Below, one piece after another: positions 27 to 8,338 of a stretch of DNA of 9,163 nucleotides. Numbering within the stretch: position 1 is the first letter of the stretch; every line of letters starts with the position of its first letter. A model generated the notes under the pieces. The model was not told the origin of the DNA. It did not search any database and was given only the letters and a program-made list of their open reading frames with translations. This DNA is from Candidatus Hydrogenedentota bacterium (GTDB lineage: Bacteria; Hydrogenedentota; Hydrogenedentia; Hydrogenedentiales; GCA-2746185): contig DTSJ01000316.1 in NCBI GenBank assembly GCA_012965445.1, positions 1 through 9,163 of the forward strand. Direction: 5' to 3'. A program made the translations under genes and the position numbers.

Positions 27-314
27 TTACGTCGTATTCGCCACCCCAAGTTCACCGCGATATTCGATCGGCGCATATGGCTTGGGATCAAATGTATCCA
101 GATGGCTCATCCCGCCAGCCATGAATACGAAAATCACCGACTCAGCCTTAGGACCAGCAACCGAGTCTTGCGCGGTCGCCGCTTGTAGCGCGAAATAGTC
201 GCCAAGCGTTAAACCAAGCCCCGATATCGCCCCTACCTTCAAAAAAGTTCGTCGGTCCAGCGGCCCTGAACACGCGGAACGTCTGAAGCTTCCAAAATTC
301 TTTGATCCTGCCAT
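27..314 (-). CDS. DUF1501 family Tat-exported protein, N-terminal fragment
   Basis: This is the N-terminal 95 residues of a DUF1501 protein, an exported family of unknown function related to sulfatases/alkaline phosphatases and normally about 400-480 residues long. The start at 314 is chosen because GGGGAGAGGAG lies 8 bases upstream; an upstream in-frame start at 392 lacks this support and overlaps a likely promoter. A twin-arginine signal is visible (DRRTFLKVGAISGLGL, then ALQAATAQ), followed by the family's hallmark stretch VIFVFMAGGMSHLDTFDPKP and then EYRGEL. The reading frame stops at 27-29, just after GELGV, where the sequence switches to a 40-base inverted copy of the CotH gene (window 1-40). 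More than three quarters of the protein is therefore missing, through rearrangement or misassembly. The identity is secure from the motifs; whether a working protein is made is doubtful. Confidence 0.8.
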   Translation of the reverse strand: MAGSKNFGSFRRSACSGPLDRRTFLKVGAISGLGLTLGDYFALQAATAQDSVAGPKAESVIFVFMAGGMSHLDTFDPKPYAPIEYRGELGVANTT

Positions 315-363
315 TCCAGACGCTCCTCTCCCCAAATATTCTTCCGCACACAGCCTGTTAGAT

Positions 364-392
364 ATTATGCCTAGAACCGACCACAAACTCAA
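364..392 (-). promoter_or_regulatory. Candidate sigma70-type promoter for the DUF1501 gene
   Basis: On the minus strand TTGAGT (387-392) is followed after exactly 17 bases by CATAAT (364-369), matching five of six consensus bases at the -10. Transcription would start near 357, giving a leader of about 43 bases that contains the Shine-Dalgarno sequence. This is a pattern match only. Confidence 0.4.
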
Positions 393-531: not shown

Positions 532-1971
532 ATGGCTGCATCCTCAACCGCTTGGCTCGTTTTTGCTAAACGCGACTGCCCAACCTGCACAATGATCGAG
601 TCCGTCCTACAGGCGCTCGACAAAGAGTCCACACCAATCACTGTCTACGTTCAAGATGACCCCTCATTTCCAGAGCAAGTTTCTTCCGTCATCGACGACT
701 CCTCCCTCGAACAATCCTATCTCCACGAAATCGAAACCGTCCCGACCCTGATCCGCATCGAAAACGATTCCGAAATCCAACGCATCGTAGGCTGGAACAA
801 GGAAGAGTGGCGCACGTTTACAGACATCGACTCCCTCGGAGAAGATCTCCCCGCTCACAGACCCGGCTGCGGCTCGAAAAATGTCGAGCCAGGCGTCACG
901 GAAAAACTCGCGATCCAATTCGGAGATGTGGTGTTCGGCTCCCGACCCATCGAACTCGCTGCACTCGAAGACGAAATGGAGGCCTGCTACGACCGCGGAT
1001 GGTCCGATGGACTCCCCGTCGTTCCCCCCACCCGCGAGCGAGTCCTCGGCATGCTCGGAGGCACCACACGCGATCCCGCAGAAATCATAGGCACCGTCCC
1101 TCCCGATTTGATCGAATGCACTGTCGAAAAGGTCGCTATCAATGCAGTCCTCGCCGGATGCAAACCTGAATATATGCCCGTCGTACTCGCCACCGTAGAG
1201 GCCGCCCTGATCGACGACTTCTGCATGCACGGACTCCTCGCCACCACCTGGTTCTCCGGCCCAATCGTTGTCGTCAACGGTCCAATCACGAAACGCATCG
1301 GCATGAACTCCGGCGCAAACGCACTCGGACAAGGCAACCGCGCAAACGCCACCATCGGCCGCGCCCTCCAGCTTGTCATCCGAAACGTAGGAGGCGGAAA
1401 ACCCCAAGGAGTCGATCGCGCTACGCTCGGCAATCCCGGCAAATATACATTCTGTTTCGCCGAAGACGAATCAGATGATCGCTGGAAGACCCTCCACGAA
1501 GAACGCGGCTTCGACAAATCCAAATCAACCGTCACGCTCTTCGCAGGCGACGGCGTGCAAGGCATCATGGATCAGCAATCACGGGAACCCGAGTCCCTCA
1601 TCGCAACCTTCGCCGAATGCCTCAAAACCGTCGCCCACCCAAAACTCGCCATGGTCGCAGATGCCATGCTCGTCGTCACACCCGAACATAGCCGAGTTTT
1701 CTATGAAGCAGGCTGGGACAAACAGAAATTCCGCGAAGCCCTCGAATTCAAGACCATGCGCCCCGGTGCAGACCTCATTCGCGGGGCAAACGACATCGCA
1801 GAAGGCCTGCCCGAACACCTAAAAGACGTCACCGTACCAAAATTCCGACCCGGCGGACTGCACATCGTCCGGGCAGGAGGCAAAGCCGGTATGTTTTCAG
1901 CTATAATCGGTGGATGGGTCGCCAGCGGCCCGATCGGTAGTCAAGCCGTAACAAAGGAGATCTCCACATGA
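532..1971 (+). CDS. Glutaredoxin-like domain fused to the large UGSC-partner protein
   Basis: The 479-residue protein has two parts. Residues about 6-95 look like a glutaredoxin/thioredoxin-fold domain: a beta strand WLVFAKRD leads into a C16-P-T-C19 redox motif, and a likely cis-proline lies in V70-P71-T72. After a linker with PGCGS comes a region of about 335 residues with the motifs YDRGWSDGLPVVPPT, ECTVEKVAINAVLAGCKPEY, VVVNGPITKRIGMNSGANA, RANATIGRAL and GNPGKYTFC. I recognise this second part as the uncharacterised protein found next to UGSC-family proteins; its reaction is unknown to me. No signal peptide is visible, so it is probably cytoplasmic. AGGAG lies 10 bases before the ATG. 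The stop overlaps the next start (ATGA at 1968-1971), so the two proteins are probably made together. The inferred role is to reduce, or be reduced by, the selenoprotein; the fold assignment comes from motifs only. Confidence 0.82.
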   Translation: MAASSTAWLVFAKRDCPTCTMIESVLQALDKESTPITVYVQDDPSFPEQVSSVIDDSSLEQSYLHEIETVPTLIRIENDSEIQRIVGWNKEEWRTFTDIDSLGEDLPAHRPGCGSKNVEPGVTEKLAIQFGDVVFGSRPIELAALEDEMEACYDRGWSDGLPVVPPTRERVLGMLGGTTRDPAEIIGTVPPDLIECTVEKVAINAVLAGCKPEYMPVVLATVEAALIDDFCMHGLLATTWFSGPIVVVNGPITKRIGMNSGANALGQGNRANATIGRALQLVIRNVGGGKPQGVDRATLGNPGKYTFCFAEDESDDRWKTLHEERGFDKSKSTVTLFAGDGVQGIMDQQSREPESLIATFAECLKTVAHPKLAMVADAMLVVTPEHSRVFYEAGWDKQKFREALEFKTMRPGADLIRGANDIAEGLPEHLKDVTVPKFRPGGLHIVRAGGKAGMFSAIIGGWVASGPIGSQAVTKEIST

Positions 1972-2489
1972 GCAGCGAACGCGTCTTACTAGACCCCACC
2001 GCAGAACTGGCTCCCTCAACCCGCGAACTGCTGCCGCGCCCCGAATCTCTGAAAGGCAAAACCGTCGGACTCCTTGATATTTCCAAAGCACGCGGCAACG
2101 TTTTTCTCGATCGAATCGAAGAAAAATTGGCGGAGATGGGTGCTGAAGTGAAGCGATACACCAAACCGACTTTCGCCCGCGTAGCTCCGGTCGATCTCAA
2201 ACAGGAAATTACTACCCAATGCAGTGTGGTCATCGAAGCCCTCGCCGATTGAGGTTCCTGCACCTCGTGCAGTATGCACGACATTGCTGACCTCGAATCT
2301 CGCGGAATTCCCGGCGGCTTCATCGCGTCAAGCGAATTCGAAGAAGCGGCAGACGCACAGGAGCGCGCCCTCGGATTCGCACCCAACCGCGTCTACATTC
2401 AGCATCCAATCCAGGACCGTACAGACGAAGAAGTCGTCGCTCTGGCCGATGCCGCTTTTGACGATGTCATCGCGATGGTCACGCAATAG
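1968..2489 (+). CDS. UGSC-family selenoprotein (UGA at 2250-2252 read as Sec)
   Basis: This is one 173-residue gene that ordinary prediction splits at an in-frame UGA into pieces of 94 and 71 residues with a gap. Reading UGA as selenocysteine gives ALAD-U95-GSCTSCSMHDIADLE, the motif that names the UGSC family, in which position 95 is Sec or Cys. The frame runs unbroken from ATG 1968 to TAG 2487-2489, and protein on both sides of the UGA fits the family, including SRGIPGGFI and ERALGFAPNRVYIQHPI. U95-x-x-C98 resembles a thioredoxin-type redox pair, and C98-x-x-C101 overlaps it. A hairpin suited to SECIS function follows the UGA. AAAGGAG lies 8 bases before the start, and translation overlaps the glutaredoxin-fused partner gene. 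The protein is probably a cytoplasmic selenol redox enzyme of unknown substrate. The alternative, a nonsense mutation, is unlikely given the exact motif position. Production needs SelA, SelB, tRNA-Sec and SelD, none of which is in the window. Confidence 0.9.
2250..2294 (+). promoter_or_regulatory. Bacterial SECIS-like hairpin directly after the Sec UGA
   Basis: The RNA can fold into a layered hairpin. The upper stem is a perfect 7-bp pairing, 2265-2271 with 2275-2281, closing a GUA loop at 2272-2274. A middle stem pairs 2260-2262 with 2285-2287, and a lower stem pairs 2251-2256 with 2289-2294, including one G-U pair and the last two bases of the UGA. Bacterial SECIS elements lie inside the coding region, have a small apical loop with a G in its first two positions, and place that loop roughly 16-37 bases after the UGA. 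Here the loop G is 20 bases after the UGA. I worked out the pairing by eye without an energy calculation. Confidence 0.75.
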
Positions 2490-2493
2490 GAAA

Positions 2494-4563
2494 ATGAACC
2501 GAAGTTCTCTTCCGTGTACGGCAATCCTGCTCTTGGGTAGCGTCGTCACGCAATCGGCAATTGCTGATGTCTATATCTCCGAGTTCGTCGCCTCAAACGC
2601 CACCGGACTGCAAGACGAAACAGGCGCACGACCCGACTGGATAGAAATCCACAACGATGGCGAACAGGCCGTCAATCTATTCGACTGGAAACTGTCCGAC
2701 GGCTCCCTGAATATGGAACCCTGGATATTTTCCGAATACCACCTCGCACCAGACGAATACATCGTCGTGTTTGCATCCGGCAACGACCGTCGAGATTCAC
2801 AACCATTCCATACCGACTTCGAACTGAAGCGCTCCGGTGAAAAGCTAAGCCTCGTCCCCCCGAAAAATACGCCGTCCCAGAAACACCAGCTAGTTTCACC
2901 GTACCCGGAACAACTTACAGATACGGCCTACGGAGTCGTCGACGGTAAACTTCTATTCATCGGCGTACCTACCCCGGGAAAACCGAATAGAGTATTCGAA
3001 CCCTTCATCGGCATCCTCGAAACGCCAAAAATCTCCCACGCGCCGAGCTGGTTTGAGACACCCTTCGAACTGTCCGTTCTAAACATACAACCCGATTCTC
3101 AGGTGTTATACACGCTCGACGGCTCAAATCCAACCTACAGAACAGCCATACGCTACACCCAGCCAATCCCCATTTCGAATACCACCACCCTGCGAATCGC
3201 GGCTTTCCACGAGAGCTATCTCGCGCCGCCAATTGCAACCTATACATTCCTCCATACACCGTCAATCGCCGCCCAGTCCCGCCCAAACAACTATCCGGAA
3301 TTCTGGGCCCCGGAAATTCCAGCCCACTACACCATCGCCACCGAGGAAAAGGATTTCACATCAGCCCTCAAAGCACTCCCCCTCATCTCAATCGTCGCCG
3401 ACTCGAAACATCTCTTCGATAAAGACACAGGCATCTACATGAACACCGAACAGGACGGCACCGACTGGGAACGCCCCGTTTCAATCGAATTCCTCGGCGA
3501 CAATAATATTCAACTCAACGCAGCACTCCGAATCCAGGGCAGGAGCAGTCGCCAACCACGCACGAGCCCCAAACATTCCTTCCGCCTACTCTTCAAACAT
3601 CCATACGGCCCGACAACGCTCAACCATCCCGTCTTCGACTCCGACAACCCGGAAGTTGAATACAACACCCTCGTCCTCCGCGCAACAAGCAACCACTCCT
3701 GGACATACCCACTCGCCGACCAACGACAGCGCGCCCAATACCTCCGCGATCCCTGGGTAAAAGAGACACAACGCGCCATGGGACACATCGTACCTAAATC
3801 GAAATTCCATCACGTCTTCCTAAACGGGCTCTACTGGGGTATCTACGCCGTTTCCGAACGCCCCGACGACGCCTTCATGGCGCAGCATTTCGGTGGGAAA
3901 AAATCCGAATACGACGTAATCAAAGGAGGCGAAGTCGTCGCAGGCAACAACCGTATCTGGCGTAGACTATTCACGCTCGCCAATCAAGGCCTGAAAGACC
4001 CGCGCCAATACCGCGCAATCACCCAATATCTCGACCTGGACAACTTCATCGACTTCATAATTCTCAACCACTTCATCGGAAACGAAACATGGGACTTTGG
4101 AAACTGGTACGCCGCTCGACAGAAAGTCGACAACGGAACCTTCCGCTTCTTCTGCTGGGATGCAGAAACCTCCATGAACCGACTCAACGAAAATCGCGTA
4201 CTCACCCACAACGCCGACCGACCAACCGCCTTGTTCCATGCACTGCGCAGAAACCCGGACTTCCAAAAACGATTCACAAATCGCCTGCACCTTCACTGTA
4301 CAGAAAACGGCGCATTGACCCCCGAACGAAACATACTTCGATACGTATCGCTCGCAACAAAAATAGACCTCGCGATTATCGCCGAATCCGCGCGTTGGGG
4401 AGACTACCGCCTGACACGCCACCCCTATCGTACCCCGCCCTTCGAACGCTACACACGAGATGACCACTGGTATGTCGAACAGCACCGAATACTTACCGAA
4501 TATCTCCCTAATCGCACGCATATTCTGCTGGATCAATACCGATCAATCGGTCTATTCGATTGA
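2494..4563 (+). CDS. Secreted protein with lamin-tail, chitobiase-like and CotH domains
   Basis: The 689-residue protein begins with a signal peptide (about residues 1-24, cleavage after QSAIA). A lamin-tail domain follows (about 25-130: VYISEFVASN, ARPDWIEIHN, FDWKLSDG). Next is a chitobiase/hexosaminidase C-terminal-like beta domain (about 183-255: VLYTLDGSNPTY). A CotH kinase-like domain starts near residue 294 (LPLISIV), with GRSSRQ near 349, PKHSFRLLFK, EYDVIKGGEVVAGN near 472 and FCWDAETSMN near 554. The W-D-x-E stretch resembles the metal-binding acidic motif of CotH proteins. CotH phosphorylates spore-coat proteins in Bacillus; in large exported relatives like this one the target is unknown. 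The start at 2494 gives the best signal peptide and lies 4 bases after the selenoprotein stop, with AGGA very close; an in-frame ATG at 2464 is an alternative. Bases 3906-3945 recur inverted at the window's left edge. Confidence 0.82.
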   Translation: MNRSSLPCTAILLLGSVVTQSAIADVYISEFVASNATGLQDETGARPDWIEIHNDGEQAVNLFDWKLSDGSLNMEPWIFSEYHLAPDEYIVVFASGNDRRDSQPFHTDFELKRSGEKLSLVPPKNTPSQKHQLVSPYPEQLTDTAYGVVDGKLLFIGVPTPGKPNRVFEPFIGILETPKISHAPSWFETPFELSVLNIQPDSQVLYTLDGSNPTYRTAIRYTQPIPISNTTTLRIAAFHESYLAPPIATYTFLHTPSIAAQSRPNNYPEFWAPEIPAHYTIATEEKDFTSALKALPLISIVADSKHLFDKDTGIYMNTEQDGTDWERPVSIEFLGDNNIQLNAALRIQGRSSRQPRTSPKHSFRLLFKHPYGPTTLNHPVFDSDNPEVEYNTLVLRATSNHSWTYPLADQRQRAQYLRDPWVKETQRAMGHIVPKSKFHHVFLNGLYWGIYAVSERPDDAFMAQHFGGKKSEYDVIKGGEVVAGNNRIWRRLFTLANQGLKDPRQYRAITQYLDLDNFIDFIILNHFIGNETWDFGNWYAARQKVDNGTFRFFCWDAETSMNRLNENRVLTHNADRPTALFHALRRNPDFQKRFTNRLHLHCTENGALTPERNILRYVSLATKIDLAIIAESARWGDYRLTRHPYRTPPFERYTRDDHWYVEQHRILTEYLPNRTHILLDQYRSIGLFD

Positions 4564-4773: not shown

Positions 4774-4893
4774 ATGAAAGCACTATTGGCAACCTTGATG
4801 ATTGCTCTGTCAGTTACTTTTGCTGGATGCTCTAGCGACGACGCTGATGACGCAGCTACTGAAGAACCGGCCGCTGAAGATGCTGCTGAGTAA
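4774..4893 (+). CDS. Small acidic lipoprotein, 39 residues
   Basis: This short gene encodes a classical lipoprotein: MKALLATLMIALSVTFAGC, with a lysine near the start, a hydrophobic core and a lipobox T-F-A-G-C whose cysteine is residue 19. The mature part would be only 21 residues (SSDDADDAATEE, then PAAEDAAE), made almost wholly of Ala, Asp, Glu and Ser and strongly negative. GGAAAGGGAAA upstream of the ATG serves as a ribosome binding site. It has its own intergenic region on both sides and a strong hairpin downstream, so it is probably transcribed alone. Small acidic lipoproteins of this kind are often abundant envelope components, but I do not recognise the family. It would sit in the inner or outer membrane depending on sorting; Ser at +2 does not signal inner-membrane retention by the E. 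coli rule. Confidence 0.72.
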   Translation: MKALLATLMIALSVTFAGCSSDDADDAATEEPAAEDAAE

Positions 4894-5047: not shown

Positions 5048-5767
5048 ATGAACAGCAGTTATATCCAAAATCTTGCCGCCCTCGTAGAGGAATCTCTCCA
5101 AACCAAAGGCGAATATACCGCGCTGAAGTTCAATGACACTCCGCACTCCAATGCTGAGACCGCCTCCAACGGTCGCCGACTCCAGACCGCTTTTAGCCAG
5201 CTCGGCCTCCAGAAAGAAGATATTGTCCTCGTCTGCATGGTCAACGACCCAATCGTCCATTCCGTTTTTCTCGCAGGATTTCGAACCGGTGCCGCGCTCG
5301 TCCCCGTCGTATCACAGTTGATTGCCTCTGAACTCGAATACATCATTCAGCACACCACCTCAAAAGCCGTCATCACCGACATCGAAAAAATCGACGCAAT
5401 GCGCCAGGCCGTCAGGAACGCGCCCCACGTGAAATGGATCGCAGTACGCGGCGGCGTCACAGATGAATCCAAGACCCCGCGCGAGTACAGACTCGAAGAA
5501 CTAATCGAACACCCGGAGTCCACCGAATTTCCCGAGCAGACCCGGGAAGACACAGCTCTCATCCTCTATACATGCGGCTCCACCGGAAAACCCAAAGGCG
5601 TCATGCTCACGCACGGAAACCTCCTCGCCTCAGGTGAAACCCTCATCGATGCCGCCGAACTTCATCTGCGCGATCACCCCATGCGCTCAATCACAACATT
5701 GCCCATGGCACACATCTTCGGCATCAGCCTGATGACTGTCGAATTCCTCATCCCTATACTAACTTAA
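5048..5767 (+). CDS. Acyl-CoA ligase, N-terminal part of a split gene
   Basis: These 239 residues are the N-terminal half of an AMP-forming acyl-CoA synthetase, which activates a carboxylic (fatty) acid with ATP and then joins it to CoA. The nucleotide-binding loop is present from residue 174: YTCGSTGKPKGVMLTHGNL, with Cys and Ser where YTSGTTG is usual. The second core motif follows as LPMAHIFGISLM. The frame then runs into a stop at 5765-5767, shortly after EFLIP. The rest of the enzyme resumes in another frame at about 5797, so this is one gene with an internal deletion and frameshift; roughly a dozen or more residues appear to be missing between the halves. Alone this piece lacks the catalytic lysine and C-terminal domain and should be inactive. 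No good Shine-Dalgarno sequence precedes the ATG, so the start is less certain than the family. Confidence 0.8.
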   Translation: MNSSYIQNLAALVEESLQTKGEYTALKFNDTPHSNAETASNGRRLQTAFSQLGLQKEDIVLVCMVNDPIVHSVFLAGFRTGAALVPVVSQLIASELEYIIQHTTSKAVITDIEKIDAMRQAVRNAPHVKWIAVRGGVTDESKTPREYRLEELIEHPESTEFPEQTREDTALILYTCGSTGKPKGVMLTHGNLLASGETLIDAAELHLRDHPMRSITTLPMAHIFGISLMTVEFLIPILT

Positions 5768-5805: not shown

Positions 5806-6573
5806 ATGATGTCTCTAATCCTCAATCATCCACACTTCGATAAGTATGACTTGTCCTCACTGTTCAAAGTCGACATTGGAGGCGCACCCATGGCCGTAGA
5901 ACTCGCACGCCAATGGAAATCACGCGTCGGCTCACACCTCAGGCAGCGTTACGGAATGACAGAAAATTCCGGGAAATGCTCAACTGATAGAACATCCGAA
6001 CCATACTATGAAGGCTCAGTTGGCCGCGCATACCATTCCACTGACCTCCTCATTGTCGACGACAACGGAATTCCCGTACCTGCAGGCCAATCCGGGGAAA
6101 TTCTGACGGCCGGACCGACCACCATGAAAGGCTACTTCAAGGACCCGGATGCTACCGCCCTGACACTACGCGACGGATGGCTGCACACGGGCGATATCGG
6201 CTACCTTAACGATGAAGGATGGCTATACGTGGTTGATCGCAAAAACGACATGATAATAAAAGGCGGTGAAAATATATACCCCGCAATACTCGAAGATGTA
6301 CTGTACAAACTTCCAGCCATTGCCGAGGCTGCGATTGTAGGAGTACCCCACGAAATCTATGGCGAAGAACCCATGGGATTTGTCGTACAATTGCCAGACC
6401 ACGATTTGGAAGAAGCCGATGTCCTCGATCACATGAAAAAACACATCACAAAATTCAAAGTCCCGTCTCGGGTTCTTTTTCGCGACTCTCTTCCAAAGAG
6501 CGGTGTCGGAAAGGTCCTTCGTCGTAAACTACGCGATGAAGTTCTCCGGAAAACTCCGGGAGTAGAAGCATGA
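5806..6573 (+). CDS. Acyl-CoA ligase, C-terminal part of a split gene
   Basis: This carries the rest of the acyl-CoA synthetase: the substrate region (HFDKYDLSSL, VDIGGAPM), RYGMTENSG (the YGxTE motif), GWLHTGDIGYL (the ATP-ribose-binding Asp), DRKNDMIIKGGENIYP (the hinge to the mobile C-terminal domain) and SGVGKVLRRKL with the catalytic lysine. Family similarity begins a few codons before the ATG, with V-P-T at 5797-5805 in the same frame, which shows that 5806 is not a natural start. The two parts with the gap sum to about 507 codons, slightly short of typical family members. All core motifs are intact, so the break is recent or technical. The stop overlaps the start of the enoyl-CoA hydratase (ATGA at 6570-6573), so the two genes were translated together, consistent with a joint role in fatty or aromatic acid breakdown. 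Confidence 0.82.
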   Translation: MMSLILNHPHFDKYDLSSLFKVDIGGAPMAVELARQWKSRVGSHLRQRYGMTENSGKCSTDRTSEPYYEGSVGRAYHSTDLLIVDDNGIPVPAGQSGEILTAGPTTMKGYFKDPDATALTLRDGWLHTGDIGYLNDEGWLYVVDRKNDMIIKGGENIYPAILEDVLYKLPAIAEAAIVGVPHEIYGEEPMGFVVQLPDHDLEEADVLDHMKKHITKFKVPSRVLFRDSLPKSGVGKVLRRKLRDEVLRKTPGVEA

Positions 6574-7466: not shown

Positions 7467-7976
7467 ATGAGTCAAGAAAACTGGGACCCACCGAATGTCG
7501 ATTCGCTTTACCCCGAGCTTGACGCAGAACTGTTAGACAAAATTCAGAGCAGAAACTGGAAAGTTGTCTACGAAATCAGAAATTACGGCAAAGCCGTGGA
7601 CTTCCAGCCCATCGAAGAAATTTTCAATCAAGGCGCTGAAACCCTCAGTATCGAACCGCGATATCACATATATCCCGCGTCAATCTCCTACGATACATTC
7701 ATCGACGGTGTCATCAAAGAAACCCTGCAAGTCCCCTGTGTCAACATCGACGACCAGATGCGTATCGTTTTCGGATTCGGTATTCGCGATGACCACTGCT
7801 ACTTCGTCACATCTACACCTGTCCCGTCCAGCTCAATTCGCAGTGAATCAAAAAAGCCAAACTGCGCATGCTTCGTCGCCGAATACCCAGTCCGCGTAGG
7901 AACCCCTACCATACCCGCAATACTCGAGACCCCGACAATAAGGCCCTTCGTTTCTTTAAGATGCGGCAGCGCATAA
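7467..7976 (+). CDS. Unrecognised protein; its last third is probably an artefact of a junction
   Basis: I do not recognise this protein. From ATG 7467 the frame gives 169 residues; it also stays open back to a TTG at 7365, but nothing supports that start, and no clear Shine-Dalgarno precedes either. Residues 1 to about 111 look like real protein: mixed composition, no signal or membrane segment, acidic N-terminus, stretches such as WKVVYEIRNYG, YPASISYDTFIDGV and MRIVFGFGIRDDHCYF. Beyond about base 7800 the frame runs antisense to a convincing dehydrogenase gene and turns into low-complexity Pro/Ser/Thr-rich sequence, so that tail is probably not natural. The likely picture is a gene of unknown function whose 3' end was lost where it meets the truncated dehydrogenase. 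It follows the hydratase gene on the same strand after 117 bases, but I cannot say whether it belongs to that operon. Confidence 0.5.
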   Translation: MSQENWDPPNVDSLYPELDAELLDKIQSRNWKVVYEIRNYGKAVDFQPIEEIFNQGAETLSIEPRYHIYPASISYDTFIDGVIKETLQVPCVNIDDQMRIVFGFGIRDDHCYFVTSTPVPSSSIRSESKKPNCACFVAEYPVRVGTPTIPAILETPTIRPFVSLRCGSA

Positions 7977-8338
7977 TACGTACACCACACGCTGCTCATA
8001 TAGTTCAATCTCATCAAGTATTCATAGATAGAAAGACCTTCTACATCGTCCAGATTCGCCCACATTGTGCCGCCGACGTTATTTACAATTACATCCAGTT
8101 TACCGAACGCCTCAATCGCCCCGTCAATCAACTCGGCGCATTGGCGCTCATCAGTAACATCCGCAACCGCTTCCGCACCAAGCTGCTTACATTGATCCAC
8201 AACCTCGTCCAGCCTCGATTCAGTCCGGGCAGCCAGCACCAGATGAGGATTCTGCGGCGCAAGCTGCAAAGCCAGCGCCCGACCAATCCCCTCGCTCGCA
8301 CCCGTAATCACAATTGTCTTCGCTGTAAATATACCCAT
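7799..8338 (-). CDS. Short-chain dehydrogenase/reductase, C-terminus missing
   Basis: This is an NAD(P)-dependent short-chain dehydrogenase/reductase. It shows the cofactor loop TGASEGIG near residue 12, a likely NADPH-favouring AARTESR after the second strand, DVTDE, NNVGG in place of the usual NNAG, the catalytic serine region GVSSIAG and the active-site Y-x-x-x-K in GYSATKHA. The start at 8338 is well supported by GGAGG 5 bases upstream. The frame ends after 179 residues at ELDGTGVDVTK, exactly where family members continue into a strand and a substrate-binding loop, usually another 70-80 residues. Similarity therefore stops near base 7805 and the 3' end of the gene is missing. Without that part the enzyme probably does not fold or bind substrate. 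Its substrate is unknown; a lipid or ketone role would fit the neighbouring fatty-acid genes but is only a guess. Confidence 0.82.
   Translation of the reverse strand: MGIFTAKTIVITGASEGIGRALALQLAPQNPHLVLAARTESRLDEVVDQCKQLGAEAVADVTDERQCAELIDGAIEAFGKLDVIVNNVGGTMWANLDDVEGLSIYEYLMRLNYMSSVWCTYYALPHLKETKGLIVGVSSIAGMVGVPTRTGYSATKHAQFGFFDSLRIELDGTGVDVTK

What the first reader, a model, noticed from the sequence alone, without database searches (positions are those of the whole stretch)
1968..2489. UGSC selenoprotein hidden as two broken pieces by an in-frame UGA
The two open stretches 1968-2252 and 2274-2489 are in one frame and are joined by TGA at 2250-2252. Translating TGA as Sec yields U-GSCTSCSMHD, the signature of the UGSC family. 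Standard gene calling would annotate a short protein plus an orphan fragment, or nothing.
Basis: partly seen in the sequence, partly recalled or inferred. Interest (0 to 1): 0.85.

Follow-up and report, generated by a model that had tools for sequence, protein, structure and literature searches.

The report
UGSC selenoprotein with its thioredoxin partner
A bacterial gene that looks cut in two by a stop codon is most likely one intact gene for a selenium-containing protein of an already known family, and it sits, as most of its relatives do, beside a partner gene without a family name, which hints at what the protein does.

Summary
One frame (1968-2489) is interrupted by a single TGA at codon 95; read as selenocysteine it gives a 173-aa protein over the cut-offs of Pfam UGSC and NCBIfam 'UGSC family (seleno)protein', and both halves match NCBIfam's model alone. 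In 80 of the 80 best genome loci the same codon is a stop (73 TGA, 7 TAG) followed by GSC and an open C-terminal half. Of 21 of their genomes tested, SelB passes its cut-off in 21 and tRNA-Sec in 20; the 6 TAG genomes among them have CUA tRNA-Sec, a recoding already published. The window's own genome is not held. So: a new member of a known family.

Beyond the finding: the gene overlaps by 4 bases an upstream gene (thioredoxin-like domain plus a large domain with no Pfam family). That domain lies beside UGSC in 119 of 122 loci, also beside Cys forms, and is sometimes fused to it. The UGSC model alternates strands and helices, unlike the thioredoxin fold suggested in print, and its Sec region aligns Sec-on-Sec with glycine reductase selenoprotein B. 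I propose a Grd/Prd-like reductase recharged by its own thioredoxin; substrate unknown.

The parts
1968..2489 (+). UGSC-family selenoprotein gene, 173 aa, read through one TGA
2250..2252 (+). TGA read as selenocysteine, residue 95, first residue of a UGSCTSC (UxxCxxC) motif
2265..2281 (+). SECIS-like hairpin: arms 2265-2271 and 2275-2281, loop GTA, 19 nt between TGA and loop
2250..2295 (+). possible extended stem pairing the TGA region with 2289-2295; only partly kept in relatives
1953..1959 (+). ribosome-binding-site-like AAAGGAG, 8 nt before the UGSC ATG
   Evidence: read by eye from the sequence
532..1971 (+). partner gene, 479 aa: N-terminal thioredoxin-like domain (CPTC) plus a large domain with no Pfam or NCBIfam family; overlaps the UGSC gene by 4 bases (ATGA)

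Best explanation
Window 1968-2489 is one gene for a UGSC-family selenoprotein: UGA 2250-2252 is decoded as selenocysteine by tRNA-Sec and SelB, guided by the hairpin at 2265-2281 (inferred from homology, conservation and the machinery of relatives, not measured). It is the second gene of a pair whose ends overlap, so the two are probably translated together. Proposed working (inferred): the UGSC subunit is an alternating alpha/beta domain with the selenolate at the start of a helix, as in the Sec region of glycine/sarcosine/betaine reductase selenoprotein B; the large domain of the partner binds or activates the substrate; Sec95 attacks it, a Se-S bond forms with a Cys of UxxCxxC, and the partner's thioredoxin-like domain (CPTC) reduces that bond again. 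The substrate is unknown. My odds: about 0.97 for 'Sec-encoding UGSC gene', about 0.8 for 'works together with the partner domain', about 0.45 for 'Grd/Prd-like chemistry'; the figure below is for the gene and its decoding together with the partnership, taken loosely.
For: Family match over cut-off, both halves alone. Stop codon in 80 of 80 loci (the best 80 of 529 confirmed), 73 TGA and 7 TAG, each followed by GSC and an open C-terminal half. After the TGA, differences from the window still fall mostly at third codon positions (588/455/1396 at positions 1/2/3). Hairpin arms pair in 96.3% of cells over 31 sequences. Of 21 genomes chosen from the 80, SelB over cut-off in 21 (controls: 2 of 14) and tRNA-Sec in 20 (controls: 5 of 14); 15 of the 20 best tRNA genes read UCA and 5 CUA, the 5 being in genomes whose UGSC gene has TAG; the sixth TAG genome has a CUA gene too, besides a UCA one. 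In 68 genomes of the phylum of L002, UGSC is in 5, all with TGA, and SelB in 4 of these 5 against 6 of 63 others (Fisher p 0.001). In at least 5 of the 21 genomes SelB and tRNA-Sec lie within about 3.5 kb of UGSC. Partner domain linked to UGSC in 119 of 122 loci, fused in four aligned cases, and beside a Cys form in a haloarchaeon. At E up to 10, 23 of 35 UGSC proteins hit GrdF and 22 hit GrdB models, best 8.6e-6; hhalign 91.9%, Sec on Sec; the GrdB HMM finds 33 of 35 UGSC proteins at E<=10 and 15 below 0.01, against 0 of 35 reversed, and 27 of the 2746 other-ORF controls less the GrdB ones at E<=10, none below 0.01. UGSC model pLDDT 92.
Against: The window's genome is not held. Relatives with Trp (3) or Arg (1) of 17 at position 95. 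Covariation in the hairpin is weak: one pair changes on both sides and 23 of 500 shuffles reach the score; codons constrain the same bases, and two shorter folds have z of only -1.0 and -1.7. G043 has UGSC but no SelB or tRNA-Sec at the limits used; SelB and tRNA-Sec also occur without UGSC (6 and 9 of 63). In G047 the two genes lie on different contigs; L135 shows no partner. The partner domain matches neither GrdB nor GrdE-like proteins, and the UGSC-partner fusions match GrdB only weakly (prob 1.1%). The window's own protein has no GrdB-type hit and E 0.071; 3 of 10 UGSC proteins scanned singly have none. In the reverse search the UGSC HMM finds 12 of 12 GrdB at E<=10 but only 4 below 0.01, and 3 of 600 shuffles also come in, the best at 1.2.
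Confidence: 0.9

Rival explanations
1. The TGA is a real stop or a sequencing error: two pseudogene fragments of a Cys-type UGSC gene.
For: The contig has other damaged genes: AMP-binding gene split at 5767/5806 with about 43 model positions missing, short-chain dehydrogenase ending early at 7799. Cys forms of the family exist.
Against: 80 of 80 loci have a stop at exactly this codon and a preserved C-terminal half; the hairpin is largely kept; TAG users have matching CUA tRNAs in 6 of 6 genomes tested.
Confidence: 0.02
2. UGA is read as tryptophan (a table 4/25-like code) and the protein carries Trp95.
For: 3 of 17 full-length database relatives carry Trp here, which may come from such a translation; their DNA was not seen.
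Against: ORFs of the window end in TGA (1969-1971, 4561-4563). 13 of 17 have Cys. Relatives have SelB and UCA tRNA-Sec.
Confidence: 0.01
3. The UGSC protein is a general thiol-disulfide oxidoreductase with a thioredoxin-like fold, as suggested in the 2008 GOS paper (PMC2398784), and the neighbour is incidental.
For: UxxC motif; the published suggestion (passages).
Against: The AlphaFold2 model (pLDDT 92) alternates five strands with helices, Sec after the third strand; fold matches are to other alpha/beta proteins. Partner linkage 119 of 122 and fusion.
Confidence: 0.12
4. The partner domain is a hydratase or lyase of the class I fumarase kind and the UGSC subunit is its small subunit; Sec/Cys serves catalysis or cluster binding, not reduction.
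For: Weak Foldseek matches of the partner model to class I fumarases, prob 0.41-0.77; in Natrinema the pair lies near CoA-transferase, HMG-CoA lyase, amidohydrolase and isocitrate-lyase-family genes.
Against: TM-scores 0.17-0.27 and rmsd 11.9-16.3 A, that is, no reliable match; the thioredoxin-like domain fused to the partner suggests reduction.
Confidence: 0.15

Closest known systems
UGSC-containing selenoprotein family (Pfam PF24696, NCBIfam NF041046; GOS selenoproteome, PMC2398784)
   Same: Near full-length match over both cut-offs, UGSC motif, Sec encoded by UGA, Cys homologues exist.
   Different: Nothing essential found. The 2008 paper suggests a Trx-like fold (passages); the model here says otherwise.
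Glycine/sarcosine/betaine reductase selenoprotein B (GrdB/GrdF/GrdH; TIGR01917, NF040794, NF040795, TIGR01918) and D-proline reductase PrdB
   Same: UxxCxxC with Sec aligned to Sec and similar sequence after it; PMC13188914 gives UxxCxxC for GrdB and homology of PrdB with GrdB (passages).
   Different: UGSC is 173 aa against about 430; no match of the partner to GrdB or to GrdE-like neighbours; far below the family cut-offs.
UGSC/Unknown_1 fusion of the GOS paper (PMC2398784)
   Same: A UGSC domain fused to a conserved domain, as in L150, L153-L155 here.
   Different: Whether Unknown_1 is this partner domain was not checked: the supplement was not seen.
UAG-encoded Sec of Geodermatophilaceae (Mukai 2016, not held; cited in PMC5330540)
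   Same: TAG at the UGSC Sec codon and CUA tRNA-Sec, reported for UGSC-motif selenoproteins (passage).
   Different: The window uses TGA.

Membership tests
UGSC family (PF24696 / NF041046) | profile score over curated cut-off | tested here: met
   151.2 bits against 125; 141.4 against 25
UGSC family (PF24696 / NF041046) | Sec or Cys at the first position of xGSC | tested here: met
   TGA at codon 95; stop in 80 of 80 loci; Cys 13, Trp 3, Arg 1 of 17 full-length relatives
bacterial selenoprotein gene | hairpin just after UGA (16-37 nt in PMC10778597, passage) | tested here: met
   7-bp stem, loop GUA after 19 nt; 96.3% of cells paired in 31 sequences, covariation weak
bacterial selenoprotein gene | SelB and tRNA-Sec in the same genome | tested here: inconclusive
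   window genome not held; genomes of relatives 21 of 21 and 20 of 21
bacterial selenoprotein gene | selenium in the protein | not testable with these tools
   needs labelling or mass spectrometry
GrdB/PrdB selenoprotein B | score over NCBIfam cut-off | tested here: not met
   10 of the 35 UGSC proteins of A3 scanned singly: 7 have a hit at E<=1, at most 22.8 bits against cut-offs of 65-800; the window's own protein has none
GrdB/PrdB selenoprotein B | UxxCxxC Sec site in the same place of a shared domain | tested here: met
   hhalign 91.9%, E 7e-7 for this one comparison, Sec on Sec; distant homology, not membership
GrdB/PrdB selenoprotein B | pyruvoyl-type partner subunit (GrdE/PrdA; recalled) | tested here: not met
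   partner profile against 7 GrdE-like neighbours (so named by recall): prob 0.1%
thioredoxin fold (for the UGSC subunit) | thioredoxin topology | tested here: inconclusive
   the predicted model alternates strands and helices; a fold search cannot exclude it

The most novel reading that the evidence does not exclude
UGSC proteins are not thioredoxin-fold redox proteins but the catalytic half of an undescribed two-part selenoenzyme (or Cys enzyme), spread over several bacterial phyla and at least one haloarchaeon: a GrdB-like Sec domain plus a substrate domain that has no family name yet, in some lineages with its own fused thioredoxin. It would be a glycine/proline-reductase-like system outside the amino-acid-fermenting anaerobes where those enzymes are known (recalled), acting on an unknown substrate.
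Probability: 0.4. Interest if true: 0.65.

Novelty: new member of a known kind. Interest (0 to 1): 0.35.

Why it matters
The gene itself is one more case of a known selenoprotein family that gene callers cut at the UGA. [quoted passage not shown] That makes its function testable: express the pair, label with 75Se, and look for reductive cleavage driven by the fused thioredoxin.

Full report
Observation. The frame 1968-2489 holds two open stretches separated by one TGA at 2250-2252. Reading TGA as selenocysteine gives 173 aa with U95-GSCTSCSMHD. NCBIfam NF041046 'UGSC family (seleno)protein' matches at 151.2 bits (cut-off 125) and Pfam PF24696 UGSC at 141.4 bits (cut-off 25); each half matches NF041046 alone, 2.6e-15 and 1.7e-20. 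That the frame stays open after the TGA is not by itself remarkable (1494 of 20000 shuffles).

Relatives at protein level. A search of 5.8 billion proteins gave 418 relatives, 120 listed. By a pattern count, 98 of the 120 end just before the codon in question, 17 run through it and 5 are other forms; of the 17, 13 have Cys, 3 Trp and 1 Arg. The search takes only proteins of 0.55 to 1.75 times the query's length, so truncated forms under 95 aa are not counted.

Relatives at DNA level. All 80 have a stop at codon 95, 73 TGA and 7 TAG, followed by GSC and an open C-terminal half. The 7 TAG loci are Geodermatophilus and Blastococcus. UAG as a Sec codon there, also in UGSC-motif selenoproteins, is already reported (PMC5330540, passage, citing Mukai 2016, which is not held).

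Machinery. No genome is held for the window. In 21 genomes chosen from the 80 loci, SelB passes its cut-off in 21 (2 of 14 control genomes) and tRNA-Sec in 20 (5 of 14 controls); the miss is L001's genome. Of the best tRNA gene of each of the 20, 15 have anticodon UCA and 5 CUA; the 5 lie in genomes with TAG. The sixth TAG genome tested, that of L075, has a UCA gene as its best hit and a CUA gene on another contig; the seventh, L031's, was not tested. In 68 genomes of the phylum of L002 (a Candidatus Hydrogenedentota MAG), UGSC is in 5, all with TGA. SelB (E <= 1e-65) is in 4 of these 5 and in 6 of the other 63; tRNA-Sec (E <= 1e-9) in 3 of 5 and 9 of 63 (Fisher p 0.001 for SelB). G043 has UGSC without either hit. 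In at least five of the 21 genomes (those of L028, L030, L050, L066, L070) SelB and tRNA-Sec lie within about 3.5 kb downstream of UGSC, and Pfam finds SelA in 6 and the SelB wing domain in 9 of 75 genes scanned. The window is probably from the same phylum: its partner protein is 95% identical to one named Candidatus Hydrogenedentota, and in L002 the gene after UGSC is 50% identical to the window's CotH-like gene.

Hairpin. 2265-2271 pairs with 2275-2281 around a GTA loop, 19 nt after the TGA. Folded as 61 nt the z-score is -2.5, but only -1.0 and -1.7 for two shorter cuts. In 31 sequences (the window and 30 of the 80 loci, chosen by me) the 7 pairs form in 96.3% of cells; one pair (G-C, G-U, A-U) shows changes on both sides, and 23 of 500 shuffles reach that score. 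The outer stem is only partly kept. The bases also encode conserved residues, so this is fair but not strong evidence of an RNA signal.

Fold and distant kin. The UGSC model (pLDDT 92) has five strands alternating with helices, Sec between strand 87-93 and helix 96-111, unlike the thioredoxin fold suggested in PMC2398784 (passages). At E up to 10, 23 of 35 UGSC proteins hit sarcosine reductase GrdF, 22 glycine reductase selenoprotein B and 11 TIGR01918, best 8.6e-6; unrelated families come in with at most 4 members, best 0.0043. GrdB-type genes from 7 of 251 Chloroflexota genomes show UGTCTRCG and similar motifs. hhalign of 35 UGSC against 12 GrdB proteins gives 91.9% over 84 columns with Sec on Sec. 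With the GrdB HMM, 33 of 35 UGSC proteins come in at E up to 10 (29 below 1, 15 below 0.01; the window's 0.071), none of 35 reversed, and 27 unrelated ORFs, 3 of them below 1 and none below 0.01. With the UGSC HMM, 12 of 12 GrdB come in (9 below 1, 4 below 0.01), 0 of 12 reversed and 3 of 600 shuffles, the best at 1.2. The partner matches neither GrdB nor GrdE-like proteins, and the fusions match GrdB only weakly.

Conclusion. The finding is right and the gene is a new member of a known selenoprotein family. The wider inference, a Grd/Prd-like two-part enzyme with an unnamed partner domain, is my reading; the linkage is shown, the distant homology of the Sec region is likely, the chemistry is inferred.

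Noticed in passing
window 5048-5767 and 5806-6573: An AMP-binding (acyl-CoA ligase-like) gene is split between two frames with about 43 model positions missing between the pieces; damage or assembly error.
   Followed up: no
window 7799-8338 (-): Short-chain dehydrogenase gene seems to end early; possible frameshift.
   Followed up: no
window 27-392 (-): Start of a DUF1501 gene that stops at 27; by eye it seems to go on in another frame.
   Followed up: no
L003, L008, L017, L027, L031, L053, L075: TAG instead of TGA at the Sec codon in Geodermatophilaceae; CUA tRNA-Sec in 6 of the 6 genomes tested, one of which also has a UCA gene; the recoding is already published.
   Followed up: yes
L150, L153, L154, L155: UGSC-like domain (motif GHUSTCAP) fused to the partner domain in one frame through a single TGA, Chloroflexota.
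   Followed up: partly
genome G225 (Chloroflexota): 12 UGSC matches in one genome, which also has a GrdB-type gene.
   Followed up: no
L167 4278-5974: Haloarchaeal plasmid with Cys-type UGSC and partner domain near CoA-transferase, HMG-CoA lyase, amidohydrolase and isocitrate-lyase-family genes.
   Followed up: partly
window 4774-4893; L105 downstream of UGSC: Small lipoprotein-like ORF in both places, read by eye.
   Followed up: no
L164: UGSC match with TGC at the Sec codon; the one TGA counted inside lies elsewhere (SEKF-TGA-PAGQ), so this may be a damaged Cys form.
   Followed up: partly
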